A DNA stretch of 64,000 nt from Seison nebaliae (taxonomy: Eukaryota; Rotifera; Pararotatoria; Seisonacea; Seisonidae): contig JALJEE010002469.1 in NCBI GenBank assembly GCA_023231475.1, forward strand, positions 60,985 to 124,984, in the 5' to 3' direction. This document shows, one piece after another, positions 2,010 to 62,139 of the stretch (position 1 is the stretch's first letter; every line of letters starts with the position of its first letter). The notes below the pieces were generated by a model that did no database searches, was not told where the DNA came from, and saw only the letters and a list, made by a program, of their open reading frames with translations. The position numbers and the translations under genes were made by a program.

Positions 2010-5000
2010 TTATAGCATATCCTTCGACCGTAAATAATCATGGATTAAATTGGTCAATTTGAAACCGGTGAATCGTTCCAATCTCTCGGGTAAGTTTCTC
2101 GCCGATGGTAATGAACTTATTCGTTTCTCTTCTTCTGGCTCTTCTTCCGTCATGCGCGAAGGACAACTGTTTCGTCGCGAACTCCACGGCTCTCCTTTCG
2201 GTAGACTTTTCTTCGCCGGTAGACTAGAATCGATACTTGACATCATCTCAAACGAATTGAGCCAGGGCACTTGTCGATATTTCCCTCGACGATTCATTGT
2301 CGACGGGAAACTCTTCTCACTCGTCAATCGAGCCCACTCGCCAACATTCCCATCCGCCATCATTTCTATATCATGTCCATCTTCTGACACATTGACCGGC
2401 AACAGATTACCACTCTCTCCACGTCCATTCCTCAATCTTTTCGACATTCTCCGACGTTTAAAAAGAGTGCTAAAGCCTAAATAGACAACTATAATTACGA
2501 CGATAAGCAGGACACCTGGAAATACGATAGTTCCGATTAAAGTCATAAAGATGTTATACTTCCTTCTGGAGCCGGGCGATTTCAAATGACGAATTTTACG
2601 ATAATTCTTCGTTTTAACAATCACACTTTCGTTATGTTTCAAACAATTGGAGTTAATATAAGGATCGTTTCTCGGACATAAACATTCGCCATTTCTCATC
2701 TCAATTCCATCGCAACCAGTTTCATTCGAGAGGAGAAGTTTCTTCTCAACCGATATCGTCTTTCCAGTAATGCGCAATAATTCCATCACATTCTTTTCCA
2801 CATGACCAACTGCAGTCGTACTGAATACATCATTGAAACAAGATTTTATTTTACAAGTAAATATTTTATGAAAAGTTGAATGAACATTGAATCCATCGAC
2901 GAACATGAACAACATTCCATTATCAAGTTGAATACGACGAATAACCGGATGTCCCAGATCTTTTTCAAACGACATTCTCATTGATTCTATAATTCGATAA
3001 GATCTCTTTTTTTCTTCTTCTAATTTCAATAACTCATTCATATCCGTTACTGCATACATTATATCGTCATTCATTACGAAATCGACAATCGTCGAATAAT
3101 TCCCAATTATTTCAAGTTGTTCAATCATATCTCCCGTCCATAACAATCGTATGATTCTCGTTTCTATTCGATGATCTTTATTTGCCTCCGATTTCTCCAA
3201 AATAAACAGATATTGATCATGTATCACTAACCGTTGAATGTCGAATTGACCTCTATATGGAAATGGTGAAAGAATGGAAAGTGGAGGAAGTGGAGAAACT
3301 TCGTTTTGTAAATGAAAAATATTCGATGTTTCAAATTCGGCAATTCGTCAATCTCTCCTACAAACATTTCATTTCGTTCATTCACAAAGAATATTTGATA
3401 ATTGAATCGATCGATCTCCATAAACTTTATCTGTCCTATACTTACCAGAGGTGACTGTTTTCGATCTAAATAAGTCAATCCTTGAAGTGGGATATTGAAA
3501 TTAGCATCTTGCTAATCAATTGTCGATTAAGAGAAGAAAAGGTGAATTAGAACACATGTATTGTAAAAATAAAAGAACCTGAAAAGATGGTAATTCGAAA
3601 CGAAAAAGAAAAGCCGATTCTTCACCATCACTAATAATATAGAGATATGGTGCTAAATACTTCATTTTCACGACTTTATTTTTTCGAATATCTAACAACA
3701 TCTGCATTCGTAAACTCATCATTGTTTGTTTGAATTTGAAGAGTTTACCTCGTTCATCGAACGAATACCATTGGAATCCCATCAAATATTTCTTTGAGAA
3801 GAAGATTGAGAGGAACAGTTCGTCATTTCTCGTCTTCGGTGTACATGGGAGTTTTTTCGTTTCGTTATTGAACAAAGGAAAGTTTGCCGATTTTTTTGAC
3901 ATTTGATTTTGGATGATTTCATGTTTCATATATTTCTCATATTCATAAATGATTTCTTCAGTTCCATTTGCAACCTGTTTACGGAAACCGAAGAAACAAA
4001 ATTTCTCTTTCTTCAAATGACAACAAATTCTCTTCCAATTTTTTTCGAAGAAATAATCTTCCTCCGAATTGACAACATATCTCCCCAATAGATGTAATCC
4101 ATTCTTCCAAAATAATTTAACAATCAATTCATCTAATTCCGTATCGAATATGATGAGAATAATTGCAGATAAATCATTTTTCTCATTCTCCTTCATTTCC
4201 ATTATCTGGAAATCTTTTATGATATTATTCGTTTGAGATGTGTAGATGAATTTCGATGCCATATCATTCATATTTAATTCAACGAGGTTATGTTGTTCAT
4301 AAAGAAAATAAAGTTTGGGAGATCCGTTTGAAAATAACCATATGAAATGATGGACATCTGGCAGGAATGGAATTTTACGATTCTTCCCATTGGAACTTAT
4401 TTCGAAATTTTTATGGATTTTACAATTTTTAAAATTGATCATTTTACAACTTTGTCCTTCGGATATGAATGGCCATAAACAATTTTCCGATTCGTCCGAT
4501 GTATTTTCTCCTCGTCCATCCATATTATTTTCGATGGTTCCATGTGTAAATGGAATAACTTCAGATATGGTGGGAAAGAAGGCGGAGAAGTTGAGTGTGG
4601 TCTTATTATATCGTAATAGTTTGTGCATATACCAAGAGAAGACATAAATTTCATCATTATACGATTTCGTTAATGATGTGACGATGGTCGTTGAATTATT
4701 TAATCGATTACATTGGTGAGGCAATCGAGGCCATTTCCCTAAATTTGCACATTCATTTTTATCGTTCACTTTTCGCCATTTGATGGCTCGATATTTTTTC
4801 GTTTTCAACGCCCGATAAATATTTCGGGGAAGGTAAGGCATCATCATAATTTCATCGTCGACCGTTTCCACTTTTATTGCGTCGCTTTTAAAAGAAATTT
4901 TCATTTAAATTTTATGAAAATGATAAATTGAACTTGTCGATAGATAAGGTGATGGAACCGATGGGCAACTTGTCCACATAAAGGAAATCGATGTTGTTCG

Positions 5001-6902
5001 TCGATGGATCACATTGGGAAATAGTTTGAAAAAGTTGAAGGAATTCGAATGCGATTAGTAATTCATTCTCGAACAATTTAACGAGACCGAGAACTAAATT
5101 ATTTTTAATATTAATATCTAAATGGATTATATTCACATTCTCCAACAGTTGAACATGACAATCTATTAAAAATCGACATTTAAATAATATATGAGAATGA
5201 GATGATAAAACCGTTTTGTGTGGAAATTCCTATGAGTTTATGTTGAATCAATGCGACGAAATGTGTTTGATTTCGATATTGATATGAATGGACGAATGCC
5301 AAATCCAATTCTTTATTGATGAATGGTAAAGTGAGTATGGTGGACATTAGAAATGGAGTGCCATTTTTTAAAATGAGTCGATCGATTCGATTCGGTCGTC
5401 TTAACAGATAAAGATAATCATTCGATTCATCTAAGAGGTTCGATTCATTCAATGTACTACAAATATGTCTGGTACGAGTTTTCGCTAAATACGTTTGACG
5501 GTTATGTTCCTCTATCAAAAATAGAGAATGTAATTCCTCATCATAATTCATGTATTTCAATTCATATAAGACAATCTCCGTCGGCGAATGACGTCGAAGA
5601 AGATTTTGTAACAATAATATCTTGTGATGATGAAATGCATTCTCTTTACGTAATTTCTGAAGTGCTCTTATCTCACAATTCTCCATCGATCGTTGAATGA
5701 TTTTCGTATTGGTCGTCAGTATGACACGTGTACAATGGTTGCCAGAATGAACTGATAATTGTTTAACAACATCAACATCTTTCAAATATTTCAAATTAAT
5801 TTCATTACCCATTTGTGTCATAGGGCGATTGGAGAAATTAATTCTCAATAATTTCTTCATACAATTGTTGAAGAGATAAATTATTCCGTTGTCACTATCG
5901 ATACTGATGACGTCTTGTTGGACACATTTTATTGTCTTATTATTGTCAATTTGCGTTGGCAAATCGAATTCATAAGTATTATTTGTATTTGATCGAATCT
6001 GCAAGAACGGTTGTTTTCCTGATCGATATCCAAATATCCCAATCGAACTAAAGAAGTTGAATGAAATAGGATTGGAATAGAAATGAAAACTCTTTCAATC
6101 GATGAATGGATGTGAGAATTTGAAAATTCTCCAATCGAACAACTTGTGCGTCGTGGATAATTGAAAAATGTTGAGTCTTCCTGAGGAAGTTCAAACGGTA
6201 AAATCGCTTACCAAAATTCTCGTCATCTTCCAACCATTGCAATTGGTTACAATACTCGTCATAACGCAAATAAGTAACTGCACTCGCTCGATAATCTCCA
6301 AATATCGGACGACATTTGTTCAGAACGAAAACATGTTTGCTGTCATTACCTTCCTGTTATTGGGAGAAATGAAGGAAAAAAATGAATTGATCTTTGGAGG
6401 ATATCTTCAAGAAAAGTATATTAGATAGATGATGAAAAGTGGAAAATAGAATTTTCCGTCAAATAGATATGAATGAAGATATGAGATGATGATGATGATG
6501 ATGATGATATGAAAGTGTTGAAATGAAAAAAAAGGTAAATAAGTTTTAAAGTGGAGATAGAGTAGTAGAGAGTGAAGAAGTAGTAGAAGTAGTTAGTGAA
6601 TAAATAAGAAAGAAAACCTTTTGAATATTCCCAATGAACAAGTTCTTCTTAACTTCATCGTACCAGAAGAAGGAACGACGATGGTAGGCGATGAAAGTAA
6701 AATGGGGAGCATAGGCAGCGGATGAAATGACGTCCGCTTCTTTGTTCTGACAGGTGATTGCAATATGAACTGGGTCCTTTGAATTCTCACGTAATAATTG
6801 CAAATGACGGCCGTAGCTAATGAGATGCACGTTACGGAACGCTATGACATTCCCGCTCAGTAGACAACACATGAATAAAACAAAGAAATGTTGGCGCTTC
6901 AT
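2010..6902 (-). CDS. Large type I membrane protein, beta-propeller-like ectodomain with EGF-like module (diverged LDL-receptor-like)
   Basis: Seven exons join in frame to 1457 codons: 6902-6618, 6353-6091, 6047-5212, 5162-4934, 4884-3579, 3511-3300, 3252-2010. The product starts with a signal peptide (about residues 1-22, hydrophobic core FFVLFMCCLLSG). A long ectodomain follows, with recurring hydrophobic-aromatic strands of the kind seen in YWTD-type propellers (for example ISIDSDNGIIYLF and IYVFSWYMHKLLRYN). Near the C-terminus lies a Cys-rich EGF-like piece (CDG...GECLCP...NSNC), then one membrane segment (about 25 residues rich in Ile/Val/Leu) followed by KRRR, and a cytoplasmic tail of roughly 150 residues. 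Propeller-EGF-membrane order recalls LDL-receptor relatives, but no canonical YWTD motif or LDL-A module is visible, so the family is inferred. Every intron starts GTT; five are 43-67 bp and the first is 264 bp. Confidence 0.8.
3440..3445 (-). other. Unused GTAAGT site inside an exon
   Basis: On the minus strand the coding sequence reads through CTG|GTAAGT, which encodes part of SPLVSIGQI. It resembles a standard animal 5' splice site, yet the frame continues on both sides and the exon closes properly at a GTTTCT donor 140 bases later. Listed because it bears on the unusual donor preference in this genome. Confidence 0.6.
6481..6510. repeat. GAT triplet microsatellite within intron 1 of the membrane-protein gene
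   Basis: Tandem GAT/ATG triplets lie inside the 264-bp first intron (6354-6617). Expansion of this run may explain why this intron is longer than its neighbours. Confidence 0.85.
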
Positions 6903-9383: not shown

Positions 9384-10240
9384 TCATTTTCCATATTCTG
9401 CAGAACGTTTTGAAGAATGATGGAAAGATAGTGTTAAAAATTAGGAAACTTTGATTGAAACAAATTTGAGGTTTATCTGGACCGAGATAAGTATCACAAA
9501 CCAATTTGGTTAAATTCTCTGTTGCATCATGTTGGATTTTATCGGTGTGAATCTAAAAATTGGTAGAAGTTCATTAACAATATTCGAATAGTTCAAGAAC
9601 CCCATTCACAGTTACCCAAGGCACAAACTCATGTTTCGGCCTTAATTTAGCCGTTTCAGTACCAACATAATATTCCAAAACATTACCTGCCGTACTGTTC
9701 GCACAACTCATTAAAATTCTTTCATCAAACTTGATCGATTTGGCGCACTGTAGAAAATGGGAAACAATTGAATCAGAAATCAAAAAAAAATTTGAGCAAC
9801 CTTCAAAGCAATGTTATCGATATTGGATGGTTTCTCACTTTCTTTACTGATGAAATATTCCATACAATGTATGAACGTGAATTTTGATGGCTCATCCGTA
9901 ATATAATTTAATGCACATGTCTCCAATATATTTCCTCGACATTCAACTGGTCCATGTTGACAAACGTATTCATAGTTATATGGCGATTGTCTCGTAATCT
10001 ATAGACGAATTAAAATTAGAATTATCTCACTAGTCATTGAACCTTTGTATTACCGAAAGGATAGAAAGTTATCTTCATAATCGTTCCAACTTCTTTTTCT
10101 GCTTTTTCCAATTGTCCCAAAGTGAAATCGACACAATCGGGACAAAGTGATTCCATGTAGAGCCCAATGTTGACCGGTGGTGCCATATGGGCATTTGAGA
10201 GGAGAAAACATATGAAGAGGAGGAATATTTTGGAAATCAT
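9384..10240 (-). CDS. GILT: Gamma-interferon-inducible lysosomal thiol reductase (GILT) family protein
   Basis: GILT enzymes reduce protein disulfides in the acidic lysosome. Five exons join in frame (10240-10043, 9998-9801, 9747-9601, 9552-9450, 9397-9384) to 219 residues, within the family's usual size. A signal peptide covers about residues 1-18 (KIFLLFICFLLS). The active-site CXXC is CPDC at 33-36 within LYMESLCPDC, and the GILT signature CQHGPVECRGNILETC starts at residue 79. The conserved stretch PWVTVNG|IHTDKIQ falls exactly across the third intron, which fixes that splice. Introns of 44-53 bp start GTTCAA, GTTGCT, GTTCTT and GTTTCC. The last splice is less certain; without it the protein would end about 20 residues later, at 9376. 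Family assignment is secure. Confidence 0.92.
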
Positions 10241-11910: not shown

Positions 11911-13277
11911 CTACGATATGGTGGACGCGACAGAATTTGCATTTCGTTCAACGTCGTTAGTTCTCGGTTGAGTTGATGAGAAATCGTTTCGGAAGTTCGT
12001 TGCTCGGAATCGTATCAGATTTCTTTGAACGATATGCTTGTCGAATTTGATTTGAAGATCATAAGCTTCTAAAATATCTTTTTTACATAAAGGACAACTA
12101 CGATGATCCATCAGCCACTTGTCCACTTCCTTCTTATGGAAATAATGTCTGAATGACAATGATGAAAAGAGAAATTAATCGATTGATATTTTAACTTGCA
12201 CGGAAGTTCTCGAATGACGTCATTCACTCGAAATGAATCTAAACAGATCGTACATGGATCGCCTGTCAATACCACATCGCCATCCTTTACAATCCGTTCC
12301 GGTATTTTACTTAACGCTTTTTTCGTTGCCGCAACAATTTTCTTCTGAAAATTTTTTGAAAGAAAATTATGTAATATATTGAAGTGAGAAGGGAATTAAA
12401 CTGTGAATCTCGATTTGGCATTTGATGTTCTCATTCGTTGCCAATAGTAGACGCAACACCAGATGAGTATTGTCATTATAAGAAAGATGAAGAAGAGGAT
12501 GACCACATAAACGGTATTAGTTTTATTCGGTTGACTAAAAATTTGAGAATGGAAAATTAAAATTTTACATTTGAAATGAAAGTAAAAACGTTATTCGAAT
12601 ATAGTAGGAAGTGCCTTTGATGATGGAGAGGTAGCCAATAGTATTAGTTGTTTTAACGATCTTCTTCAACAGTTGTCCATATGTCTGATTGATGAACACT
12701 GTTACGATATCGCCATCTATAAAAGAGAATGAAAGAAATTGAAAAATATTTCTTTAAAATATATTAAACGTTTCGTTGTTCTGATGTTATGTTGGAAATT
12801 ATTATCCTGATCATAAATGACGGCAGCTACAGCGTTAGCGGATTTGACCTGTCGAATCTTCTCTTCGAATGAACAATTGCCGCGAGGAATTAGTGCAATC
12901 CAATTCCTATTCTTCTTATCGACGTTAACTCCACAAGCATCAGTGTCCGTTCTGTTGGAAGTGACGTGAAAGAGGGGGAGAGAAGAGACGTTGCTATGAA
13001 GTGAGTCGCTGCCATAGAAACCGACCTCTTCCAGAGGATAAACATAAGATTTATGATTTGTCGTCACATTCAAATGGAAAATGACCGATAAGTAATTTGG
13101 ATGTAGACTTTCATCTTTCATCTGAACCTTCACCAATTCTTTCAGAAATTTTAAATGTTCCGAATTCTTACTCGAATCCGATCTGCCTAACTGCTCCTTA
13201 CCAATTACCTCATCGTTTTCTGCGGACACGTGCCAAACGAGCAACGTCCACAAGAAACATAGATGGTAGAGATACAT
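11911..13277 (-). CDS. Goliath/GRAIL-type PA-TM-RING E3 ubiquitin ligase, RING with an altered zinc ligand
   Basis: Family members are endosomal membrane proteins whose cytoplasmic RING-H2 recruits E2 enzymes. Five exons (13277-12770, 12716-12590, 12534-12402, 12344-12196, 12148-11911) give 384 residues. The order is signal peptide (MYLYHLCFLWTLLVWHVSA), protease-associated domain (NWIALIPRGNCSFEEKI, then HGDIVTVFINQ), membrane segment (TVYVVILFFIFLIMTILIW), the KKALSKIPERIVKDGD linker, and RING-H2 (CTIC...LPCKHYFH...CPLC). The sixth metal ligand, normally Cys in HKxCVDPWL, is Glu (HKKEVDKWL). I chose the ATG at 13277 because it gives a clean signal peptide and directly follows a good acceptor (TTTAACAATCGTCAG). 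An in-frame ATG at 13340 would add 21 residues. All four introns (47-57 bp) start GTT. Confidence 0.9.
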
Positions 13278-22062: not shown

Positions 22063-25000
22063 TTACGACTTCTTCTCACACGCCTTCGTCAACACATCGA
22101 CATAAATCGCTCCATAACCATTACCAGCCAGTCTTTGTAATTCCGTTCTAGCCATATCATCGTCGTTGGAATTTAAGACATTCATTTGAGCAGTTGCCAA
22201 TTCCAGATCACGATCTTCTGCACTCATCTTCTTTAGAGATCGTTGTCGTTTCTTCTCAGCTGATTAATGAAACGGATTAATGAAATTTCTCATGATTATT
22301 TCTAATAGAAACCTGTAGAATTATCGAGTGAGAGATGAAGTGTTTTCTTACCACTATCAATCTCAGCGTCTATCTCAACTTGTCCTATGAATTCATCTCT
22401 TGCTAATTCATTCTTATCATATACCTAATGAAAATTAATTTGAAAATGATGAATTTGAATAAGACAAATTAACTTGTACGACAATCGGTTTCTTCGTTTT
22501 CTTTCGATAGAAAATGGCACTCATATTCCATTCAGGATTGTCTGAATTACTGACAGCAGCCGATTGAACATTCTCTTTATCACATTTAATTATCACATAT
22601 GGATCCATATCTATTGACATACATAAATTCAATTATCGTTAAATGAGAGAATGAAAAAAAAAACTTTTATTCGTTTCTTTCCCTTTCAATTTCTTTGGTT
22701 CTCCAATCACATTGGATGGTCGATTTAAATTCTCTGCACGTTTCACATGAACTAAAGTTGAGCATTTTACAGGTCCAGAACAACATCCAACTTTTGGATG
22801 ATCTTCAATCAATTCACTATCGGATAGTTTTGATGATGATTTGGAGAGAGAGAATTAATAATAACGTCAAATTACAGAATTGATCCGAATAGATTCGTAG
22901 AAGGAAATTCCCGTCGATATTCGGATCAAATGTTGACGGAATAATGACGTAACGTCCATAAGGCAAATAGGTGCGAAGGAAAACTGATCTGGTGTTGATG
23001 TAAGTGGAGACACCAGCTTTCGGTTTGATTTCTTTCAATCGATAAATTCGATTTTCTTCCACCTATTCATCCAAAACTCATATTATATAACAAAAAAAAA
23101 AGAGAATTGAATAAACTTTCATAATGTAAAATCCGATTGTTAAATTTGTAATTCCTTGTCCTCTCACATAACGGAGATCGTGTTGAATCAAATTTATCAG
23201 AACAAGATCTTCTGATTTAGAGATGTCAAATCGATACTAGAAATGAGAAAGTTAATGAAATTCTAAATTGAATTTGAATAATATGAAACTTGTGGATTAT
23301 TGAAGAAAGTACTCTTATTATTAATGCAACCGCCATTACGGTTTGGTGGCGACCAAGAGCCTATAGCTAACGCTTCACTCCAAGTCTTTCTTAAAGAGAA
23401 GAAAGAAGTGTTGACTATTCGACAAATGGCGACGTCAGTGAAATATTGACAGAAATCAGAGAATTCCATCCAGAATTCTCCATCATCATCAAATGTTAAT
23501 CCGAGTCGTTGTCTTTGATGATCGGGAACTTGTTTCCATTCATCGGAATTGTGAGACCATGGTCCATTCCATTCTTTATCACCCCATGGATTCCGAATTC
23601 GAATAAGCATTACTTCCTCTTTCACTCCTGCTAAGAAACTGAGAACAGCTTCTTCTCGAATTTTTAATCGTTTAACACTCGTAATTCCATAAGCATGACC
23701 TTTAATCAATCCACATGGTAGAGTAACTTCCATTTGTTCGGCCGATTTAATGTTGATGGCACAAGCCATCAATGAACGATAATCATACTCATTCTTTAAT
23801 AATTGAAATAATGCTTCACGCTTCTCAGCATCACGTGCATATCCACCATCAATGATACTTATCGGTTCAGCGACACCTCCTGTAAAGTCAGTGAGAGCTT
23901 CTTGAAGATTACCACCATCCAAATTCTCATAACAGCCATTCAATTTCGCATAAGCTTTCTCCAACAAAGCACTCCAAAATTCATTTTTGGATTTCGAACG
24001 AATAAATATCAATTGTCCACCAATTGTTGGTAATTGATCGTCAATGACCACTTCGATCCATTCACCAAATCGCCAGAAATTAAAACGGAAAATTCCTTGA
24101 TAATTCTTCGCATTATCTTCATTCCATTCTTGATCTTTCCAATTAGGAATGACTTTATTCCAAATACTCTTCTCCGTCGCCAACACGGAACAAGCAGCGA
24201 CGAACCAACAATTTCCTAATTGTCCTTGATAGACGTCATTCTGACTAATACCATCAACGAACAATTTAGGATTGGGACAAATATCCTGTTCGTTTTGATT
24301 GATAAAAAATGAACAATTGAAATTAATTGATTAAATAAATTTAAATTAACTCCTGGTCTCTTCCAATCGATGCCGCGAATACTCTGCGAATGGAATAGAG
24401 ATTTATCATCTGCAGGAAATTCGGGATCTTCAAATAATGTTTTCGATTTGAGTAGATCCTTTCGAATTTTGTTATAATCTTGATTCTTGAACTTTTTAGG
24501 TCGATCAAATAGTCCAGTGAGCCCAAGCTTCTTAGCCGCATCTAGAAGATTGGTTTGGGAGAAATAAAAGAAAAATTAAAAATTGATATAACGAAATAAT
24601 TCAATTATTATTATTATTATAAATAATATTATTATTATTATTTTCAATTTAATTATATTCCTTTTTGTCTGATGAGTTGATGAGTGAATGGAAGAGAGTT
24701 CACTATATCTTAATCATAAATTCATTTTCTTCTCTCAACAATTTCATGTGAATGTGCAGAAGAGAAAGTGATTTGCTCTCAATTCTCGTTAATTTCAATT
24801 TGGCGTTTAGTAGAAGAAAAGGAAAATGTTGAGAGTTATGAAATAATTTTACCATTGCGACGAACGTTCTCCTTCTTTTCAGTGAGGAACTGCTGATTCA
24901 ATGCTTTTGTTCTTGCTGTCCCTACACCGGCAACGGGTGCCTTCTTTCTTCCAATCGTCGATGTCTTATCAGCATCAATATTATTATAATTATGAATTCC

Positions 25001-36144: not shown

Positions 36145-38548
36145 ATGGATGTTCGCAATCAACGACTCTCATCGAAACAATACGATGACAATAATCAGCA
36201 ACAACCACAATCATTGACATCATCATCCATGATAATCATAAACAACAACAATAATAATAAAAGTAATTTAGTTTCATCCAAAAAAAATGTTAAGTTAAAT
36301 TCGGAAATTAATTTCGGGAGAAAATTCCCGTCCACCAAAGGCAAATCGACCAAAGCTAATCGTCGTCGAAATAAAGTTACGTAATAATTTTTAGAATTTG
36401 AAAATATTTATTTATTTTTGGAACTAATATTTGAAGTGAGAAATGAGAGAGAGAGAGAGAGAGAATAAATGATAAAGAATGTGAAAGAGAAGAGAGAGAC
36501 GATGAAAAAAAGAAAAAAATCCAATTGTTTTCATTGACGGAAAATTTTCATTTTTTTTATATTTGTCAAAAAAACTTTTCGTTTTCGTAGAAAGTGGATT
36601 CGCATAAAGAGGAATCTGATGTTGAACATGTTCATCAATTCCACGTCATCAATTCATCCAATGATCATACGAAGAAGAACAGTGGCAGCAATCAGTCGTC
36701 GACTAATCGTCAGAAGAAGAAGAATAATTTTAATAATAATCGATTGATTTCTAATTATCAGAAGAATTGTTTCCCAATTAATTGGAGTCGAATGGGTGTG
36801 AAAAAGATGAAATTGATGCCATCAACATATATTAATATGCAAGTAATCATCGGATATCATTCACTCCACAAATATGAGAGGAGGAGTGTTCATTCATTCT
36901 CCATCGATTTCATTGACGATTGGAACGATATTTTATATGTTCGAATGTTTTCTGATGAGGAAGTGCAATGTCCAATTTGTTTGGAAGGTGTCAGAATTGC
37001 TAAATTGACATCATGTGTCCATATCTTCTGTTGGGGTTGTCTCCAACGTTATTTCAATTCGACTAATACTACATGTAATAAATGTCCGGTTTGTAGTCGT
37101 TTCATTTATTTGAATCGAGTGAAGACATTGAAAATTATATATAATATGTCGAAGGAGAATGAGATACAATTGCGATTAATGTATGCGGTGAATGGTGTAG
37201 CAATGCCAGTGATGAATACGGAGGAGAAGAAGTTCGTTCAATTTCCATTAAATGATTATCCGATCGCTGATGTTCAATTAATTGATCGTCTTCCTTCGAG
37301 ACGTTTGTTCGTTGGAACGATTGATCATTTGTTAAAAGTAGAAAATGAGAATTTGAATGATATTCATTATCTAATGAATAATCATGTGAATTATGAAGAC
37401 ATGAATGAATTGCAATCAATAATCGATTGTAAATGTAAACAGAAAGAATTAGTAAATCAATTGAATGGCGAATTAGATGAAGAAGATTGTGTGGAGAATC
37501 GAAGGAAACAAGACAACATTATTCGAACTTATCTTCAATATATTGAGGGGAAGAATCAATTCAATTTCGAAATAATAAAAACCGAAGAAAATATTAAATA
37601 TTTCTATCAATCGATTGATGGACGATCGATTTATTTAAGTGCTTTCAATTATCATTGGCTTTTTACCAATCATGAAATGAAGATCGAACAGATACCTTTA
37701 TTGATCGATGGAAGGATTCTTTCCAAAAATTTAGTTTTCCGTAATGACGTTCGTATTCTCTTATAATTTCTATTTTATTTTTTATCGATCAATTATTAAA
37801 TTAAAAAAAATTTTAGAGACATAAACAACTTTATCATTTGAATGACAATTCGCCAATTCATTTGATTGAGATTGATATGAAAGATTTGTTGTCAGAAGAG
37901 AATTTCAAGAAGTTGGAACGTCGAAAAATGGAGAGAGAACGTTTCAAATTGAGGAAGGACGAGAACGATAATAAACGACGTGATGAGAATGAGGAACGTG
38001 AGAAGAAGAGATGGAAGAATATGAGTATCTGTTACAATGAATTATCGATGGAAGATTTGGAAGAGGAATTTGATCAAACTCTCATGGGAAATGATGACAT
38101 ATTTCCATCATTGGCCACTACCACCGTCGATACACCAACGACAAATATGGAAATTATTAGAAATGACGAAACGGTTAATGGTTGTCATAGCAATGAAGCT
38201 GATTTGTCACCATTGGATGAACATCAACAACCGGCGAAGAAAGGTTGGGATAAAAATCGATGTTGGTCTGCAATGGTCTGGAATGAGAATATTAATGATT
38301 CGAATGGCATCTTTCCTCCACTCCCAACAAACAATATTAACACCACCACCACCACTTCAATATTGCATGAGAAGGATGAGGAGGAAGAAGAAGATTTTGA
38401 ATTTCATACGAGATCGTTAATTGATATCGATCAATTCCTGGAGAAGATGGTGATTTCGGGTGGGAAAAATTCGAAACGAACAAATAAGAAAAATAATAAA
38501 AAGAAGAATAAACAACAACAACAACAACAGGAAGAAGAAGGACAATAA
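36145..38548 (+). CDS. RNF10: RNF10-like RING E3 ubiquitin ligase
   Basis: RNF10 is a RING ligase that ubiquitinates ribosomal proteins of the small subunit in mammals. Three exons (36145-36375, 36591-37748, 37817-38548) give 706 residues against 811 in human. A basic N-terminus (KFPSTKGKSTKANRRRN) and the conserved lead-in DDWNDILYVR precede the RING (CPIC...CVHIFCWGC...CNKCPVC, about residues 204-245). Further family blocks follow: YFYQSIDGRSIYLSAFNY and the FRND|RHKQLYHL junction that spans intron 2 and matches human DVRQRHRYLSHL. The tail ends in a Lys/Asn/Gln-rich stretch. The start is the ATG followed by DVRNQRLSSKQ. Introns of 215 and 68 bp start GTTACG and GTTCGT. Confidence 0.93.
36447..36466. 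repeat. GA dinucleotide run in RNF10 intron 1
   Basis: GAGAGAGA tract inside intron 1 of RNF10. Confidence 0.85.
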
Positions 38549-42779: not shown

Positions 42780-43125
42780 TTAAAAACCAAAGTATTTCAA
42801 TCAAGGGTTTAAAAGGCAAATAATGTCAATACAAGGGTTTAAAAAGCAAATTATATCAATATAAACGTTTTAAAGGCAAATTATATCAATATAATGGTTT
42901 TAAAGGCAAATTATATCAATATAATGGTTTTAAAGACAAATTATATCAATATAATGGTTTTAAATCCAAATTATATCAATATAATGGTTTTAGAGGCAAA
43001 TTATATCAATATATTGGTTTTAAAGGCAAATTATATCAATATAATGGTATTAAATCCAAATTATATCAATATAATGGTTTTAAAGGCAAATTATATCAAT
43101 ATAATGGTTTAAAAGACAATTAGTT
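42780..43125. repeat. 30-bp minisatellite, about 11 copies
   Basis: The unit is close to AAAGGCAAATTATATCAATA plus TAATGGTTTT. The first two or three copies (42780-42870) are diverged and the central ones nearly identical, with GGC, GAC or TCC variants at one spot. Because the unit is a multiple of three, one plus-strand frame stays open and repeats a 10-residue pattern (ANYINIMVLK); I regard that as a by-product. It lies 370 bases beyond the SLC45 stop. Confidence 0.95.
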
Positions 43126-43501: not shown

Positions 43502-46035
43502 TTATAGATGATAATGTTTTTGGATTTCAGAAGCAGAAGTGATTAAACCTAAACTTGATATGTATGCACATGCGCCGAATAGAGCGGCTACGATAATAAA
43601 AATGTCAATTGAATGAAAGAATGAGAGGACGGTGGATAGACTGAGAGTGAGAACGATTTGTGATGAATACCATGCACCATCTAATATTGCCATATCTAAA
43701 CTAACACCATTGCTATGTCTAGGTTTATCTTGATAGAATAACTGAATGAGAATATTTATAAATTATAATTTAATAACATTAATAAACTAACTTTCTTCTT
43801 GAGATGAAAAGTGGAGACTAATGTAAAAGGAATGACAGTTAAAGTGGCAAATAAGAATCCTGTGAAAGAGCTCATCAGATGTACCATATAAATTTCATGC
43901 TGAATGATATTAGAGTATGTTCTGATATCGAATAAATTGGCAAGTATTGTGGAATTGTTGAAATTGGATGGTTTCAACGAACCTTTCATATCATCCATAA
44001 TTTGAATGAGAGAATGATTTATTTTCCATGACTTTTTTATTTGTTGTGCTAGAGGTTGATAGTTTTCATTCGTGAAATATATTGGAGTTTGTAATAATTG
44101 GAGATCTTGTGAGAAATGAACGACACACAACATGAAGATCATTGAGAGAATGAACGATAATACTCCTAATGAATAAATACGTCTCGTTCCATAACGACGA
44201 ATGAGTTGAGGAACTGACAACGCATAAATGGCCGAAACGATACAATGCAACAATAATCCATGAGAACCAGAACGAATTCCTGTATCATAACGTTGATGTG
44301 ATCGTTCGCTAATAAGTTCGTTCGGATTGCCCAGAAATAAGCGACGACCAATCCAATCGGTATAGAAGAAGTTCCAACACATCAAACCAGCCCACGAAAA
44401 GAAATCGGTATAAGCCAATTTCCTTAAAACATATGGTGCTCGAAAGAAATAGACGAAATAAATTGGAATTATACGTCGAAGAAAAGTTTTTGGTTTTTTC
44501 AAATTCTTCTTTCGCCCATCTCTCACAATCAATAGACTGGAATTTGAATTTCGACTACTTTCAAAATGTTGCATAGATGTTGTTGAATTAAATAATTCTT
44601 TTTTTTTCTCGTTGTGGAAATCAGTCGAATCTTCATCATCCGAATCATCAAACATTTCTGAGGAACTTTCCTCCTCAGAATCATCATCAGTACAAGATGG
44701 ACATGGAGAGTCAAATGGAATAATTTGATCATTTCTCGATGAATTCTTCTTTCCATTCGCTAATAATTGTCGACGTTTCGATTTATTTCGATGTCGATAG
44801 AAACTTTTTCGTCTTCTCAATTCCGTTGCTGATGACATAGTGAGAGAGAAAGTGATGGTAAATAAGACGAGTAACAAGCCGATAACTGCCCGCTCTTGAG
44901 TGGTATTTTGGAGGAATTCTTTCGTATTCTGAATAATATTAACGAATGATTTATTATTTTTGTTGATGATGTGACGATTCTTTTTCCTTGTTGATGGTAC
45001 GACCAGTAATGTCCAATGAACTGAAGAGACATAATATCCGATACAACCGCCAATACTCATCATTGTCGAATAGATAATAAATGACGAATGATGTTGAGCC
45101 GTACCTCTGGTTAATTCAGAGATCAATGCTTCACATGGAGTTAATAATGCTTCAGAAGTAAAATCAAAAATTACGATCATAAAAATCAGACCGAAAGTTG
45201 GTAAATATGATAAGTAATATATTAGATATTGATTAACTGATGAATGTTTATGTTGATGAAATGAAGAAATATTTCTTTGTTTGAGAAGTTGTTGAGTGGA
45301 TGATGGTTTTATTAGACTATTATTATTCTTCTCAATCAATTGAGTTATGTCATGTAAGTTCGATGTATTTTTTGGATGTAAGAGATGATTGATAAAATTT
45401 GAATTATTTATATCAATACCATTCTTTTTTATAATCGATGGTATTTCTAATGATTTTGGTGTGTTTAATGTGGATGTGTGAAATGCTCTCGGATTCGGTC
45501 CAAATGACGATTGCTGATATGTTTGTGGTTGTTGTTGCATTAGAATCTCATCATATAAATCGAACTTCTTTAATACTTGTGCTATCCACATCTCTATCCA
45601 TGGCATACATGCTAAAGAAATCATCAAGAGAAGTGAGAATCCGATAATGAACGGTTTCCTCTTACCTAATCGATCTGATATTCTCGAAATATATGGCATA
45701 ACCGCTAAACAAATAAATGGACCTAAGCCTAAGATGATCCCTATTCGAGATTCGTTAATGCCCGATTTCAATAATAATGGTGGTGCAAATGCAAATACAC
45801 CACTCACCGTAAATTCCACTCCACAAATTATACAGTTTAACATGATAAGACGATAGAAAGGAATCACCGGTTTTCTCGTAACTTCAACCAACGCCTCATC
45901 TCGTCTCCATCGTCCATACACTAAATTTTTCAAATTATCATAAATTTGATGAAGACAAAGAAGTGGTAGAGTTAAAAGGAAAATTATTAATGAGAATAAT
46001 TGTTGTATTGGATTCCTGAAACATTTTCGGAACAT
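43502..46035 (-). CDS. SLC45-type proton-coupled sugar transporter
   Basis: SLC45 proteins are major-facilitator symporters for sucrose and other sugars. Two exons (46035-43792, 43741-43502) give 827 residues. The family features are clear: LNCIICGVEF in the first helix, the cytoplasmic DRLGKRKPF loop at 121-129 (the RxGRRRPF motif), the second-half start FSWAGLMCWNFFYTDWIGR matching SLC45 LTWFSxxxxxxFYTDFMG, and the YDTGIRSGSHGLL segment. A long central loop is rich in Ser/Asp/Glu (DDDSEEESSSEMFDDSDDED). The intron is 50 bp and starts GTTAGT; the last exon encodes the final two or three helices. The paralogue (SLC45A1-A4) cannot be decided by eye. Confidence 0.92.
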
Positions 46036-46442: not shown

Positions 46443-48129
46443 TTATCGCAGATAGTTAGATGTTGAAAGAATGGAATTATATATCGTATCAGTCACTCCG
46501 ATATTATTGAAGGAATTTCCATTCAACAAAATGGATGACCAATTTAATGATTTTAAGATTGAGCTAATTTCAGGTAATATTTCCGTTCGATAACCAACGT
46601 CATATTGAGGAATGGCATTCTCATAAAAATTACAAATAGAAAATACCGGAACTTTATCCGTTTTGATGACCTGATGTGATTTGATGGAATTGAGAGAGAA
46701 TTGTCGGAAATATTCCTCGAAATTTTTTCCGCTCTTTCGATAATTTTTCCAGAGATCATCAAAATGATTCCTTCCTCCCATCAATATGGTTAATCTGCCA
46801 CGTTCTTTCTTATTGACAAGTCGATCTTGTGAGGGGAAAATGAAAGAATCGAATATCACTCCAAGTACACCGATGGATGATGATGATGATGTCGATTCAT
46901 TTCGTGAAGAAGGAACGAGATATCCGAATGATTCTTTTATCATTTCTTCATTGATGATTTCTTTTAGTGGTTCATCAAATTCCAAACAAGAAACAATCAT
47001 ATTAGTTGAATGTATTCGATTTAATGAATGAGACAATTCATTCCATTTTCTATTCTTTTTTATGATTAGACGACTTAATTCACGAGAATTAATTGCAGAA
47101 ATAATTAAATCATAATTTTCTGATAAACAATTTGTTGAATGAATCGAATTCTTCTCAATTGATTCGATTTGACAATTTTTCAATATTTTCAATTTTATTC
47201 CATTCTTCAAACAATTCTCTTCAGATTTCTTCAGAAGAATATTCGTTAATTCACTCAATCCTTTCTCCATCGTCCAAACTGCCACGTCCATGTTATCCAA
47301 AATATTCTCATCAGCAAATGGCCAAACATCAGTAAGAATATTATATTTCGAACCAATTTGTTCACTAATTTCTGTTGAATGATTTTCATTCTTTCTTTTA
47401 ACTCTCCTCATCCCTCTCAATAGACTACCAGTTTTTAATAAATGTTCACCGAATTCATTCGGAATAGTTGCTCGTGCACTAAAAAAAAAGAGAGAAAGAG
47501 AGAGTTGAGAGAACTATCTTAATCAATTTAACCTTAAACGATCGATATCACCTGCATAAATGCCTGAGAGTGCAGCATCGATTACATTACTCGTTAAATT
47601 GGCACCAAAGATATGATTACATAAATCTCGGACACTCGTATCATCACATTTCTCAAAAGGATTCCCACGAATATTATCTAATTAAGATAAATATGAAATT
47701 TTGTTGGGATGGAAAGAAACTTGAAATCTCTCGACAAATCAAAGAAAACATCGATTCTCCAAAAATTTTTCTCGAAAATAAAGATGGTCGTTCAATGAGA
47801 ACGGGTCGATTCTCATGAAGAATATAACGATTTTTAAATATTTTATTCTTTTTCGATATCGTCAAAATATCGGAGGATGATGATGATAAATTTTGGAAAA
47901 GATTCAAAATTCTTCGTCCTTCAATTCCATCACCACATCGTATTGTATGAGCACCTAATTCGAAGAGACCTGATCGATCATTTCCTTCCAATTTGTACGT
48001 GTTCGTCCATCCTCCAATTTTCGACGATTTTTCATATAAATCGATTTGTCCATTACGTAAAAGAGAAGTGGCTGCATAAAGAGAAGATAATCCACTCAAT
48101 CCACCTCCAACAATACCAATTCTTAACAT
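46443..48129 (-). CDS. PPOX: Protoporphyrinogen oxidase
   Basis: Catalyses the penultimate haem step, six-electron oxidation of protoporphyrinogen IX to protoporphyrin IX, on the inner mitochondrial membrane with FAD. Three exons (48129-47721, 47677-47533, 47478-46443) give 529 residues against 477 in human. The FAD dinucleotide motif VGGGLSGLSS is at 6-15, followed by GGWTNT and FELGAHTIR. Later blocks are YAGDIDRLSARATIP, GYLVPSS, GVLGVIFDS, IPQYDVGYR and NNIGVTDTIYNS, each with a clear counterpart in human PPOX. Introns of 43 and 54 bp start GTTTCT and GTTAAA, both placed by homology (LS|ARATIP-type junction). No separate targeting peptide is seen, as in other animal PPOX. Confidence 0.95.
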
Positions 48130-54475: not shown

Positions 54476-54480
54476 ACCAC

Positions 54481-54519
<39 letters not shown>

Positions 54520-56552: not shown

Positions 56553-57778
56553 ACAAACTGATGATCTGCACTGGACATCGTTTCAATATCGTCTTGTTTT
56601 TCTAACAAATTTCCTTTCGTTATTGGGTAAATTTTGGGAGATGTTTGTTTAAATTGTGAGACATGTCTTTCTTATCAAAACAGATAACGTCTATCTTTCA
56701 TATTTTAATCATTTTGAATCAAACATTTCTGATCTTTCACTTTGTTTGTTTTCAAATTAAGAAGGCAAATCAAAAAAGATGTCTAATGGATCATTTATAT
56801 CATCCACAAACTGATAATGAAGAAAGATATTCATATTCATATTCATTTTCCTCCCTTTAACATATCACTAAATGCATTCATGACATCAATGACATTGATA
56901 GATTAATATGAATTACATGAAAATATTTTGTTCAGTTCTTGTTCATTGATCTCACCACGAAACGAGTTGAATTTGATGGAATTTGTTGAATTGATCTACT
57001 TAGGAAATCAAGTGAGAAGAGGTAAAATAAAAGTTATTTTATTTGGAATTCTCTTAAGAAAGCTGATGAAGAAGATTAGAATAATATTTATGTTTTGTGT
57101 GAAATGATAACGTGGAAGATGAATATTCTGTAGTGTTCGTTGTGGAATCAACACATTTTAAACGATCTTTCTAGCACTAGTTAATGATGAAGTGGTAGGA
57201 AGCAAGTGATTGTGAGAAGATGATAAGGTGAAATTAGTGTTATTCTTCAATCATTCGTTTGTCGATCAACGCTTGTTCTCCGTGAACTTTGGCACGATTA
57301 TTCGCGTTAGATACTTCTTTACAATAATAATATGAGAGAATATTTATTGTCGTTTCGACTTCAACAATTTCTTATTTTCCGGAAATTGGAATATGACCAA
57401 ATGACTTCCGTTCTTTCTCACATTGCAATCTACTTAATTCTTGTATGAATATGATTCTTCTCAATTTAGATGTCTTCCATTCATATACACCTAAGTTGTG
57501 AAAGGGAGAGAATTGGAGAACATATTCTCGTTTACTAATAAATTGATCAAACTAAATATAATTCCGTTTTCGTTTGTCCTCTTTTCTTCTCTCGTCCTCC
57601 TCTCCCAATCAAACTCGTCATTCATTTCAGGAAGATATTAATAAGTTGATTAAATAGAAAATTCGATAATTTCATGTTCCCCTCCCACAAGAAAATAAAA
57701 TATTTCCATTTCTTTCTCCTTTTCAAAGATAATTTCTCATTTAGATCAGAAGGAGTGAACAAACCACGAAAGAATAAT

Positions 57779-59035: not shown

Positions 59036-59865
59036 AAATTTCCCTCCGATTGTTCGTCAGTTGTATTGCCATTTTTATGATATTGCAATATTTTAATTCT
59101 TTCTTCTTTTTCTTGTTAAATAATTTTAATTCTCTCCATCATTCATCCATATTTCTTCTTCCATTCTAATGCTACATGGGAAACTATTTACTACTTCGGA
59201 ATGATTCTATGTAATCCACAACTTTTTCCATTTAACTCATTGTAAAATTTGTTTCCATTCTCCACAATCAACAACTAATGTGCACAACTGAATTGATATT
59301 GTTGCACTTAATTCAAATCATCCCATCACAATCACAATATACAAAATACAAAACGAAAGAGATGGAACAGAACATAGTTTCTTCTTTCCAACACATTTTC
59401 TCGAATGAAAATATTTCTTTTCAAAAATTTTCTCCCAATTTCCATTTTATCTCAACAACCAAACCATATCTCAAATCTTCATTTTCTTCTTGTCTTTATT
59501 CAAATTGATCGATAAATCGATTGAAATTCCTTTTCGTTAGAGAATGTTTTTTCTTTAGAAATGAAAGAGAATGACGAATTCCATGTCAAAAAACAAAACA
59601 GTTGTTATTCCATCAAATTTCCTCGATTGATAATTATAATATCAGAATCATATTAAATCAAATAAAAAATTATTTTTGAGAATTTATTCGAAACGGACAA
59701 ATGAGGGGAATGCAGTGGCATTTTATTAGAAATGGTTAAAATTATTGAAGATTCTTATAATCATTAAAAAAAGGGAAATTCGAGTGAAACAAAATTCGAG
59801 AAATTAAATTTTTTTAGTTTTCTTTTACATCGATTCTTATTCTGTCATTCGATGAAGTGGAATTG
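59036..59865. other. Spacer between convergent genes
   Basis: 830 AT-rich bases with the 3' regions of both flanking genes; a 76-codon frame at 59278-59508 has no support. Confidence 0.5.
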
Positions 59866-60360
59866 TTAGAACAAACCAAAAGGATCTTTAAATTTCTCAT
59901 CGAAATCTCTTTCGGCTTTTTCCAATAATCTCTTCGATTTCGATGATCCACCAATTCCACTGGCAGCCATTGCAAATACTTCAGGTCGAGGTCTCTGATC
60001 CATTTGAGAATTCTTCAATACCATCGGTCTTCGACTACGGACGGTAGTGGTACCTTGAAGTTTCTGATTCTGAAGTTTAATATTCCTAATTTCCCTCCAT
60101 GTCAAAGCTACAAATAAGAGAGAAGAATTTGGGGAGAGAAAATGATGAAAGAAATAAAATTGAAAGAATAACAAATAACCATCGATAACTAGCAATGAAT
60201 TGAAGAGGAAAAGGAAAATTAAGAGAAAGAAATGGATAATTGAATATCTCATCGACACAAGAAATTGATTCAGTTGAGAGGGAATGAGTGAGAGAATGAA
60301 ATAAAAGAATTTAATGAAAAGAGGAGATGGAAGAGTCATCATATAGTCTGAGCGATACAT
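59866..60360 (-). CDS. Small membrane protein, basic C-terminal domain, unrecognised
   Basis: Two exons (60360-60180, 60107-59866) give 140 residues. The intron is 72 bp, starts GTTATT and has a strong acceptor (CTCTCTTATTTGTAG). The N-terminal 60 residues contain two hydrophobic segments (PLFIKFFYFILSLIP, IIHFFLLIFLFLFNSLLVI). The C-terminal half, ALTWREIRNIKLQNQKLQGT to FDEKFKDPFGLF, is soluble, basic and looks conserved. No family recognised. The start could instead be the later ATG before RYSIIHFF, leaving a single membrane segment. It lies 124 bases downstream of KATNAL2 on the same strand. Reading through without splicing also stays open, but the hydrophobic filler it would add looks intronic. 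Confidence 0.65.
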   Translation of the reverse strand: MYRSDYMMTLPSPLFIKFFYFILSLIPSQLNQFLVSMRYSIIHFFLLIFLFLFNSLLVIDGYLLFFQFYFFHHFLSPNSSLLFVALTWREIRNIKLQNQKLQGTTTVRSRRPMVLKNSQMDQRPRPEVFAMAASGIGGSSKSKRLLEKAERDFDEKFKDPFGLF

Positions 60361-60483
60361 ATGTAATCTATAGAAATTCGTTGTGAAACATTTATTTGAT
60401 TTAATGTCACCATAAATTTCTTGAAAAAAACAGATTTATTTTATTTATGTTTAACCGATCAGAAAATTCCCATGCCCATTCTC

Positions 60484-62139
60484 TTACAATGATTCATAAT
60501 TTTCTTTCCATTTTTTATACTTCCCTTGAAATTGGGCGGCAGACGGTTTGGTACTCTTCAATGCTTGTATGACGTCATCATTGTTGATGGGATCGAGAAC
60601 GATGTTATCAACTTTGAAATCATTCTCCAGTTGATTAAACGCCTTCCTCACCGTATTCATTGCCACTTCTTTACAAAGTAAATGCAAATCGGAACCAGAA
60701 TAACCGTCCGTCAATTGAGCTAGTTCGCTGAAATTCAAATTCTCAGTCCGAATGTATGGATTGTAGAACTCTTCTGCATGATTATCTATCGCAAGGAATA
60801 GACGAAACATCTTCTCTCTTGCTTCTAATGACGGCAAACCGACATGTATCCGTTTTTCTAAACGACGTAACATTGCCTGATCTAATTCCCATGGAAGATT
60901 CGATGCGGCCAACACAAAAACTACATCATTCGATTTAGCTAAACCATCCATTTGAATGAGCAATTCAGTTTTCATTCGTCGTGAACCTTCATGATCACCA
61001 CCAGCACCCATTCCACGTTGACTCATTATTGCATCCAATTCATCCAGGAAAATGGTTGATGGAGCATAAAATCGAGCTAATTCGAATAACAATTTTACTA
61101 ATTTCTCCGAATCGCCTCGCCACTTACTGACGATAGTCGAAGCAGAGACATTGAAGAAAGTTGTGTTACATTCAGTTGCAACGGCTTTCGCTAACATCGT
61201 CTTACCGGTACCGGGCGGTCCAAACAATAGTAAACCTTTCCATGGACTAAGAATACCGGAAAATAATTGAGGATATTTTAAGGGATAAACGACCGCTTCT
61301 TTCACCACTTGCATCGACGATTCCAATCCAATAATATCCTCAAATTTCACATTTGGACTCTCCAAATAAATATCTCGAGTTATGACTTGAGCTAATTCTC
61401 TCATTTCCATCGTCATGTTACCGAGAGCGCCTAACGGTTTTATTAATTTGTCATCGTTTAACTTTTCATTCGTTTGGAGTTGATTGAATATTTGATCATT
61501 CGCTGAAATTTTTGTTACGTCGTTAATCATTGCACGCACATCAATAATTGGTCCCTTTTTTATTTGTTCCGCTTCCGTTTTTACGATAGCGCTCTTCCCA
61601 ACATTTACTCCTTGTAATTTTATTTGTTCTTTGGATTCGGTTGTTAAGTCTGTCGCATTATTTGTGGAGTTGACACTTCTCAATTTCTTTTCATTCGATG
61701 AGGTAATGCTCTGAGAGGAATTACGCGGTGCACTACTTGTCAACGGTGCTCGTTGCACTTTCGACATATTATTATTGAGCAACGGTAAATTACCGCGATA
61801 TGATTCGGTGCGTCGTGAAAAATGTTTGGGTTTCTTTCCCGATTGTTGTTCATTTGTTGAATTTCTTGTAATTTTAGGATATCGCTTAAACTTGACGAAA
61901 TAAAACGATTCGTATTCCTGCAAAATAATATCCAAATCAATATTATCACATACAAGATAACGTCGTAAATCGACACTCGTCTCGCTTTGCAAATTCTTCG
62001 ACGTGTCGATATAGCCCTCGTCTTCCAACCAGCGGAAAACTAATGCCAATAGCTTTTTCTTTCGATCCTTAACTCGTTGATCATCCGCTTCCTTTGCCAC
62101 ATAAGCATTTCGTAGGGTTTGTGTACTCAATTCTGCCAT
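60484..62139 (-). CDS. KATNAL2: Katanin p60 ATPase-containing subunit A-like 2
   Basis: AAA ATPase of the microtubule-severing (meiotic clade) group; KATNAL2 acts on ciliary and sperm microtubules in mammals. The intronless frame gives 551 residues against 538 in human. A LisH motif lies at about 26-58 (LLALVFRWLEDEGYIDTSKN), then a long Ser/Thr/Asn-rich linker. The AAA domain carries Walker A GPPGTGKT at 307-314, Walker B IFLDEL at about 363-368, ASNLPWELDQAMLRRLEKR with the arginine fingers, and the C-terminal TKPSAAQFQGKYKKWKENYESL, matching the family. DLHLLCKEVAMNTVRK corresponds to the helical lid. Start ATG is followed by AELSTQT. No catalytic residue appears lost. Confidence 0.95.
   Translation of the reverse strand: MAELSTQTLRNAYVAKEADDQRVKDRKKKLLALVFRWLEDEGYIDTSKNLQSETSVDLRRYLVCDNIDLDIILQEYESFYFVKFKRYPKITRNSTNEQQSGKKPKHFSRRTESYRGNLPLLNNNMSKVQRAPLTSSAPRNSSQSITSSNEKKLRSVNSTNNATDLTTESKEQIKLQGVNVGKSAIVKTEAEQIKKGPIIDVRAMINDVTKISANDQIFNQLQTNEKLNDDKLIKPLGALGNMTMEMRELAQVITRDIYLESPNVKFEDIIGLESSMQVVKEAVVYPLKYPQLFSGILSPWKGLLLFGPPGTGKTMLAKAVATECNTTFFNVSASTIVSKWRGDSEKLVKLLFELARFYAPSTIFLDELDAIMSQRGMGAGGDHEGSRRMKTELLIQMDGLAKSNDVVFVLAASNLPWELDQAMLRRLEKRIHVGLPSLEAREKMFRLFLAIDNHAEEFYNPYIRTENLNFSELAQLTDGYSGSDLHLLCKEVAMNTVRKAFNQLENDFKVDNIVLDPINNDDVIQALKSTKPSAAQFQGKYKKWKENYESL

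What the first reader, a model, noticed from the sequence alone, without database searches (positions are those of the whole stretch)
2010..62139. Introns start with GTT almost without exception
Across eight genes I joined exons by frame and, for calpain, PPOX, GILT, Goliath, SLC45 and RNF10, by family alignment. Of 28 introns, 27 begin GTT: for example GTTTCT at 3299, GTTCTT at 9600, GTTTTT at 12589, GTTAAT at 24350, GTTATT at 22865, GTTAGT at 43791, GTTAAA at 47532, GTTCGT at 37749. No consensus is visible at +4 to +6. Most animals use GTRAGT, where +3 is A or G and +5 G pairs with U1 snRNA. A whole genome using +3 T would imply an altered U1 5' end, a dominant U6/U5 role, or another recognition mode. 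After I noticed the pattern I favoured GTT sites, so a few placements may be biased, but the homology-fixed ones are not.
Basis: partly seen in the sequence, partly recalled or inferred. Interest (0 to 1): 0.88.

Follow-up and report, generated by a model that had tools for sequence, protein, structure and literature searches.

The report
Rotifer introns and U1 changed together
In the tiny marine animal Seison nebaliae most introns begin with GTT instead of the usual GTA or GTG, and three of its four genes for U1, the RNA that recognises intron starts, carry the matching base change, so the start signal for splicing appears to have been rewritten in an animal.

Summary
The window lies in a 36 Mb assembly that protein hits identify as Seison nebaliae (Rotifera/Syndermata). 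An exon-intron model blind to +3, run on 314 kb, introns, 76 with GTT; T follows GT in 40% of non-ORF DNA (p=7e-18). Learning from a featureless donor, or from a GTRAGT start, also ends at GTT, +3 T about 0.94. Two GenBank-annotated genes have 13 GTT donors among 14 introns. Four U1 genes were found; three read AUACUAACCUG or AUACUAACUUG instead of AUACUUACCUG. Position 6, normally U, is A and would pair with donor +3 U. The A6 genes keep the Sm site, the U1A motif and a 3' box shared with other snRNA genes; the one canonical-ended gene lacks the U1A motif but folds equally well. U6 and U5 recognition boxes are unchanged. Donor +5 and +6 carry no signal. Best reading: U1 and donors coevolved to a new 5' splice code. 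No RNA data were examined, so expression and splicing are inferred. My searches found no report in print.

The parts
3253..3299 (-). intron, donor gaa|GTTTCT (SNEBB_001553)
   Evidence: annotated protein mapped exactly
3512..3578 (-). intron, donor cag|GTTCTT (SNEBB_001553)
4885..4933 (-). intron, donor caa|GTTCAA (SNEBB_001553)
5163..5211 (-). intron, donor acg|GTTTTA (SNEBB_001553)
6048..6090 (-). intron, donor aga|GTTTTC (SNEBB_001553)
6354..6617 (-). intron, donor aag|GTTTTC (SNEBB_001553)
22260..22312 (-). intron, donor cag|GTTTCT (calpain, SNEBB_001556)
22425..22473 (-). intron, donor caa|GTTAAT (calpain)
22611..22664 (-). intron, donor aaa|GTTTTT (calpain)
22817..22865 (-). intron, donor gac|GTTATT (calpain)
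23063..23116 (-). intron, donor aaa|GTTTAT (calpain)
23237..23289 (-). intron, donor caa|GTTTCA (calpain)
   Evidence: the HMM agrees on the donor, not on the acceptor
24286..24350 (-). intron, donor gga|GTTAAT (calpain)
24542..24852 (-). intron, donor atg|GTAAAA (calpain), the one non-GTT donor of the 14 annotated
9600..9600 (-). GILT donor ggg|GTTCTT (donor position only)
   Evidence: spliced product matches Pfam GILT over residues 24-136, which does not reach this junction
9800..9800 (-). GILT donor aag|GTTGCT (donor position only)
   Evidence: read by eye
9999..10042 (-). GILT intron, donor aag|GTTCAA
   Evidence: HMM
43741..43791 (-). SLC45-like intron, donor aaa|GTTAGT
   Evidence: frame and sequence; the HMM chose 43777 instead
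47479..47532 (-). PPOX intron, donor aag|GTTAAA
   Evidence: product gapless to human PPOX across this junction
47678..47720 (-). PPOX intron, donor caa|GTTTCT
   Evidence: HMM and frame; junction poorly aligned to human PPOX
36376..36590 (+). intron, donor aaa|GTTACG (RNF10-like gene)
   Evidence: HMM
37749..37816 (+). intron, donor gac|GTTCGT (RNF10-like gene)
   Evidence: HMM path; donor letters
12535..12589 (-). intron, donor aac|GTTTTT (Goliath-like gene)
   Evidence: HMM; donor letters

Best explanation
In Seison nebaliae the U2-type 5' splice site has shifted from GTRAGT to GTT, and most U1 genes have changed with it: U1 position 6 is A, so it can pair with donor +3 U. Shown: the donor statistics and the U1 gene sequences. 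Inferred: that the A6 U1s are expressed and read these donors. U1-A6 would pair with A(-2), the GU and +3 U; one form (U9 as well as A6) can also pair with the common -1 A. Because +5 and +6 carry no signal, recognition leans on the short core from -2 to +3 and probably on helpers such as U1C, a LUC7 protein, T-rich intron bases at +7/+8 and the short intron itself (inferred). U6 and U5 recognition boxes are unchanged. The remaining GTA/GTG donors are tolerated with a mismatch or served by the one U1 gene that kept the canonical end.
For: Donors: 76 of 90 GTT with a +3-neutral model, p=7e-18 against 0.402; EM from a featureless donor or a GTRAGT seed ends at +3 T 0.936/0.935; 13 of 14 introns of two GenBank-annotated genes; both U1C introns and the five LUC7 introns that I placed by eye are GTT. 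U1: four genes by covariance model and the same four by a pattern with positions 6 and 9 left free; A6 in three. The A6 genes keep AUUGCAC in loop II and AAUUU of the Sm site and match a 3' box shared with U2, U4 and U5 genes at 11, 10 and 11 of 11; random 45-base pieces reach 10 or more in 0.7%. The contigs with U1 genes have GTT introns themselves: C208 11 of 13, C647 17 of 20, C762 11 of 11. A6 raises mean Watson-Crick pairs per donor from 4.01 to 4.79 (C9) or 5.04 (U9). U6 ACAGAGA and U5 loop intact.
Against: No RNA evidence: neither splicing nor U1 expression was observed. Even U1-A6 pairs at only about 5 of 9 donor positions, mean duplex energy -2.3 to -2.7 kcal/mol, and +4 to +6 do not follow its A3-C4-U5, so U1 pairing alone does not explain site choice. 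The canonical-ended gene L002 fits the U1 model as well as the best A6 gene (112.4 against 112.9 bits) and has fewer marked non-standard positions (6) than L003 (12) or L004 (14); its 3' box score, 9 of 11, equals that of a good U2 gene. 14 of 90 neutral calls are not GTT, and on the five arbitrarily chosen contigs 5 of 17 are not. The -1 A excess is modest (p=0.012). The method was not run on a second genome as a control.
Confidence: 0.86

Rival explanations
1. Two-code system: the canonical-ended U1 (L002) is a working variant that reads the residual GTA/GTG donors, while the A6 genes read GTT.
For: L002 fits the U1 model at 112.4 bits with as few marked non-standard positions (6) as the best A6 gene; 12 of 90 neutral donors are GTA/GTG and one of 14 annotated donors is GTAAAA.
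Against: L002 has AGAGCAC in place of the U1A motif AUUGCAC and AATTCAACTGT as its 3' box; the GTA/GTG donors listed show no GTRAGT pattern, 2 of the 12 having G at +5 with A or G at +3 followed by G, and one GTGCGA; some of them are false calls (one lies inside an annotated exon).
Confidence: 0.35
2. The +3 U preference is set by U6, U5, Prp8 or another protein, and the A6 change in U1 merely followed or is incidental.
For: U1-donor pairing is weak at +4 to +6 and in total; U6 also contacts donor +3 to +5 (PMC11347140, passage).
Against: U6 and U5 contact sequences are unchanged, whereas the one changed position shared by three of four U1 genes is exactly the one facing +3. Prp8 was not examined.
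Confidence: 0.1
3. Artefact of AT-rich composition or of biased intron placement.
Against: 76 of 90 with a +3-blind model; GTT emerges from a GTRAGT start; 13 of 14 in GenBank models; U1C gapless after removal of GTT introns; the matching U1 change.
Confidence: 0.02
4. The A6 U1 genes are pseudogenes or foreign contigs and the working U1 is canonical.
For: L003 and L004 have more marked non-standard positions (12 and 14) than L002 (6); L002 has the canonical arm.
Against: A6 is shared by three diverged paralogues with intact U1A motif, Sm core and 3' box; their contigs carry GTT introns; L001 and L002 lie on one contig.
Confidence: 0.05

Closest known systems
Major (U2-type) spliceosomal introns of animals, CAG|GTRAGT read by U1 AUACUUACCUG (consensus recalled; U1 consensus also in the Rfam alignment)
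   Same: GT-AG ends, T-rich acceptor; U1, U2, U4, U5, U6, U1C and a LUC7 gene present
   Different: +3 is U, +5/+6 uninformative, U1 position 6 is A in three of four genes
Fritillaria borealis non-canonical introns (PMC13326754; passages seen)
   Same: an animal with a genome-wide departure from the usual donor
   Different: there the paper states strict preservation of the U1 5' end and proposes U2AF paralogues and m6A changes; here GT-AG stays and U1 itself changed
Alternative U1 of the diplonemid S. specki (PMC12621601; passages seen)
   Same: a U1 gene with a changed 5' end beside a conserved one
   Different: a run of C in one of two genes of a protist, with complementarity comparable to the canonical one; not a single-base match to a genome-wide donor shift
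Laboratory U1 suppressors (Zhuang and Weiner 1986; Zahler et al. 2004; seen only as reference-list entries)
   Same: a U1 base change that matches a donor change
   Different: made or selected for single mutant sites; here natural and across the sampled genome

Membership tests
U1 snRNA (RF00003) | full-length covariance-model match above the gathering score | tested here: met
   four genes, 97.4-112.9 bits against cut-off 69.5, model positions 1-166
U1 snRNA (RF00003) | 5' arm AUACUUACCUG | tested here: not met
   met in 1 of 4 (L002); A6 in 3 of 4, with U9 also in L004. The family label rests on the fold; the arm is the departure
U1 snRNA (RF00003) | U1A motif AUUGCAC in loop II (motif recalled; also in the Rfam consensus) | tested here: met
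   present in L001, L003, L004; AGAGCAC in L002
Major U2-type introns | GT-AG termini | tested here: met
   14 of 14 annotated introns have one GT-AG placement; EM from a featureless donor finds G 0.81, T 0.97
Major U2-type introns | donor consensus GTRAGT | tested here: not met
   +3 T 76 of 90, +5 G 14 of 90
Minor U12-type introns | U12 snRNA and its donor consensus (recalled) | tested here: inconclusive
   donors do not resemble it; the U12 search found nothing, but no control genome rang either, so it says little
LUC7 family | Pfam LUC7 domain | tested here: met
   spliced product 230 bits over residues 5-240; three matches in one place of the genome
LUC7L3 subfamily | closer to LUC7L3 than to LUC7L/LUC7L2 | not tested
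   impression from recalled human sequences only; the best solved structure is yeast LUC7

The most novel reading that the evidence does not exclude
A natural reassignment of the 5' splice code in an animal: U1 and the genome's donors (tens of thousands by extrapolation) moved together from GUR to GUU, and the U1 gene family has split into readers that differ at positions 6 and 9 (A6-C9 for AG|GUU, A6-U9 for AA|GUU, U6-C9 for residual GUR), a code change caught in transit.
Probability: 0.38. Interest if true: 0.95.

Novelty: new variant of a known kind. Interest (0 to 1): 0.9.

Why it matters
The U1 5' arm is usually treated as frozen (recalled view), since one change touches every intron at once. 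A 2026 study of animal genomes with mostly non-GT/AG introns still reports U1's 5' end strictly preserved (PMC13326754, passages). Seison would show that the arm can change in an animal, that several U1 gene copies can carry the transition, and that an animal can splice with no information at +5 and +6. It makes coevolution of snRNA and splice sites testable by comparing Seison with acanthocephalans and bdelloids. It may also matter in practice: gene predictors with GTRAGT priors would misread such a genome, and the gene loss reported for this lineage could be partly inflated by that (inference, untested).

Tried and rejected
Species guesses from memory (eriophyoid mites, orthonectids) were followed through and dropped when one search returned Seison nebaliae. 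The COX1 search found no match in this assembly. The 18S rRNA search did not complete. A shared promoter element upstream of the snRNA genes was sought without a convincing result; two upstream regions (U2 L033, U6 L005) were too short to use. A shared 3' box was seen instead; it was defined from these same genes, so its scores are partly circular. A branch-site motif is weak: TCTAAT in 9 of the 76 GTT introns, 5.8-fold over non-ORF DNA. HMM errors: at SLC45 it chose 43777 rather than the frame-supported 43791; two of its ten donors in the annotated genes disagree with the annotation; its best path fused neighbouring genes twice (donors GTTATT before PPOX, GTAAGA after KATNAL2), called a repeat region as a gene and missed part of a LUC7 exon. 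Best-path calls were not counted; the 90 are posterior calls, errors included. The outside-window EM used a coding model trained on all sampled contigs, window included. No control on a genome with ordinary introns, and no comparison with acanthocephalan or bdelloid U1, could be run: no collection of animal genomes was at hand. The search for a LUC7 paper found nothing, so the exon-side/intron-side rule for LUC7 proteins is recalled only.
Full report
Where the window comes from. The window is C697:60985-124984 of an unnamed assembly of 36,032,870 bases in 846 contigs. A search with the spliced calpain gene returned 'hypothetical protein SNEBB_001556 [Seison nebaliae]', 94% identity over the whole query, on a contig of 124,984 bases, the length of C697. 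A second gene returned SNEBB_001553 of the same species as its only hit at E<=0.001 among 6,851 candidates. The published GC content of the Seison assembly, 31.9% (PMC8351084, passages), fits the window's 30-36% per 4 kb. Seisonidea are grouped with Acanthocephala as Pararotatoria (PMC12256650, passages).

Are the donors GTT? The eight cited coordinates all read GTT. I then wrote an exon-intron HMM trained on long open frames and ran it on 26 stretches, 314,000 bases. With the donor model fixed to GT and nothing more, 90 introns had both ends above posterior 0.5; +3 was T in 76, A in 6, G in 6, C in 2; above 0.8 it was 29 of 32. In non-ORF DNA T follows GT in 40.2%, giving p=7e-18 and 4e-9. 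By source: window 17 of 18, rest of C697 8 of 11, C647 17 of 20, C762 11 of 11, C208 11 of 13, the five arbitrarily chosen contigs 12 of 17 together (p=0.011). When all six donor positions were learned by EM from background composition, GTT emerged (+1 G 0.81, +2 T 0.97, +3 T 0.94, with T taking 0.13 of +1, a sign of some misplaced calls); a GTRAGT start ended at +3 T 0.935; contigs outside the window gave 0.927. Against the two annotated genes, 8 of 10 HMM donors agree and 6 of 14 annotated donors are missed.

Annotation and homology. Mapping the two GenBank proteins exactly to the DNA gives 14 introns; every junction has one GT-AG placement and 13 of 14 are GTT, the exception being GTAAAA at 24852. 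I do not know what evidence that annotation used. The U1C gene has two introns, both GTT; with them removed the protein aligns to human U1C over residues 1-57 without a gap. The one LUC7 gene found has five introns that I placed by eye, all GTT, one of them (between NILS and SRF) less surely; the spliced product scores 230 bits to Pfam LUC7 over residues 5-240. PPOX is gapless to human PPOX across its second junction, GTTAAA; its first junction lies in a poorly aligned stretch and rests on frame and HMM. With SLC45 these make 24 introns, 23 GTT. Three GILT introns are GTT as well.

The U1 genes. Rfam U1 finds four genes, 97.4 to 112.9 bits. A pattern that leaves positions 6 and 9 free finds the same four; the same pattern read backwards, as a control, has one match. 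L001 and L003 begin AUACUAACCUG, L004 AUACUAACUUG, L002 AUACUUACCUG. Position 6 faces donor +3, so A6 can pair with +3 U; position 9 faces -1, so U9 of L004 can pair with -1 A. The three A6 genes keep AUUGCAC in loop II and AAUUU of the Sm site; L002 has AGAGCAC. But L002 is not the worse fold: positions marked non-standard by cmscan number 6 in L001, 6 in L002, 12 in L003 and 14 in L004. A 3' box, AATTAAACTTT, follows the U5 gene and both U4 genes (11 of 11) and two U2 genes (9 and 10); the A6 genes match at 11, 10 and 11, L002 at 9, a low-scoring third U2 at 6; random 45-base pieces reach 9 or more in 6.5% and 10 or more in 0.7%. So the A6 genes look like regular snRNA genes, while L002 may be a variant or a copy losing its U1A site; its status is open. 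Contamination does not explain the A6 genes: their contigs carry GTT introns, and L001 and L002 share a contig.

The rest of the machinery. U6 keeps ACAGAGA and U5 its loop; U2 keeps GUAGUA. U4 and a METTL16-type gene are present. U12 was not found, but no control rang, so this says little.

What the donor looks like. Among the 76 GTT introns, -2 is A in 51 (27.3 expected from codon position, p=3e-8), -1 is A in 37 (p=0.012) or G in 19 (p=0.039); +5 and +6 do not differ from non-ORF composition (p=0.51, 0.64), +4 avoids G (p=0.017), and +7/+8 are T-rich (p=9e-7, 3e-5). Across all 90 donors, A6 U1 makes 4.79 (C9) or 5.04 (U9) Watson-Crick pairs of nine, canonical U1 4.01; the best partner by duplex energy is the U9 form in 55, the A6-C9 form in 20, canonical in 7, ties in 8. 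Mean energies are weak (-2.3, -2.7 and -1.8 kcal/mol), so U1 pairing cannot be the whole story. I infer that U1C, a LUC7 protein, T-rich intron starts and short introns (median 52.5) help.

Is it known? I saw passages, not whole texts, of two Seison/Syndermata papers: the 2021 paper has no 'donor' or 'snRNA' in its main text, one 'splice' and two 'intron'; the 2025 paper has no 'intron', 'splice' or 'U1 snRNA'. Search listings on Seison, on rotifer splice sites, U1 coevolution, GTTTGT, non-canonical metazoan introns and the U1 arm showed no such report. The library lacks most subscription journals. The nearest statement that I saw is that Fritillaria, with mostly non-GT/AG introns, keeps U1's 5' end unchanged (PMC13326754, passages).

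Scale and caveats. EM expects about 228-232 introns in 314 kb, which extrapolates to roughly 26,000 in the assembly; this is arithmetic, not a count, and includes false calls. No RNA data were examined. 14 of 90 neutral calls are not GTT; at least one of them, 25128, lies inside an annotated exon and is false, but I cannot say how many of the rest are.

Noticed in passing
L001:1650-1660 and L003:1650-1660 (minus); U2 at L032:1501-1692: The A6 change turns the U1 arm into AUACUAACCUG, which contains UACUAAC, the yeast-type branch-site sequence (recalled), while Seison U2 keeps GUAGUA. U1 could in principle pair with U2; untested.
   Followed up: no
L001-L004, U1 loop I: Loop I differs from the Rfam consensus GAUCAAGAAG in all four U1 genes (GAUCAGGAAC, GGUCAAGAUG, GAUCAUGGAU, GGUCAGGAAG), so U1-70K binding may have shifted too.
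   Followed up: no
G000:C540:21603-22771 (L037, L038, L039): Only one LUC7-family place was found; from recalled human sequences it resembles LUC7L3, recalled as the type that favours exon-side donors, which would suit donors without +5/+6 signal.
   Followed up: partly
window 2013-6872 (-): SNEBB_001553, 1447 residues with a long hydrophobic stretch towards its end (by eye), had no hit at E<=0.001 but itself among 6,851 candidates.
   Followed up: partly
L034:1501-1702: A third U2 gene scores 78.7 bits against 139.1 and 135.4, has many non-standard pairs and no 3' box; probably a pseudogene.
   Followed up: partly
L032:1501-1692, L033:1501-1692: Seison U2 has an extra U between GAUCAA and GUGUAGUA and two extra bases in its first loop compared with the Rfam consensus.
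   Followed up: no
window 42793-43123: AT-rich tandem repeat (ACCATTATATTGATATAATTTG units) beside the SLC45-like gene.
   Followed up: no
window 39660-40070 (+): Long glutamate/lysine-rich low-complexity stretch within a 767-codon open frame.
   Followed up: no
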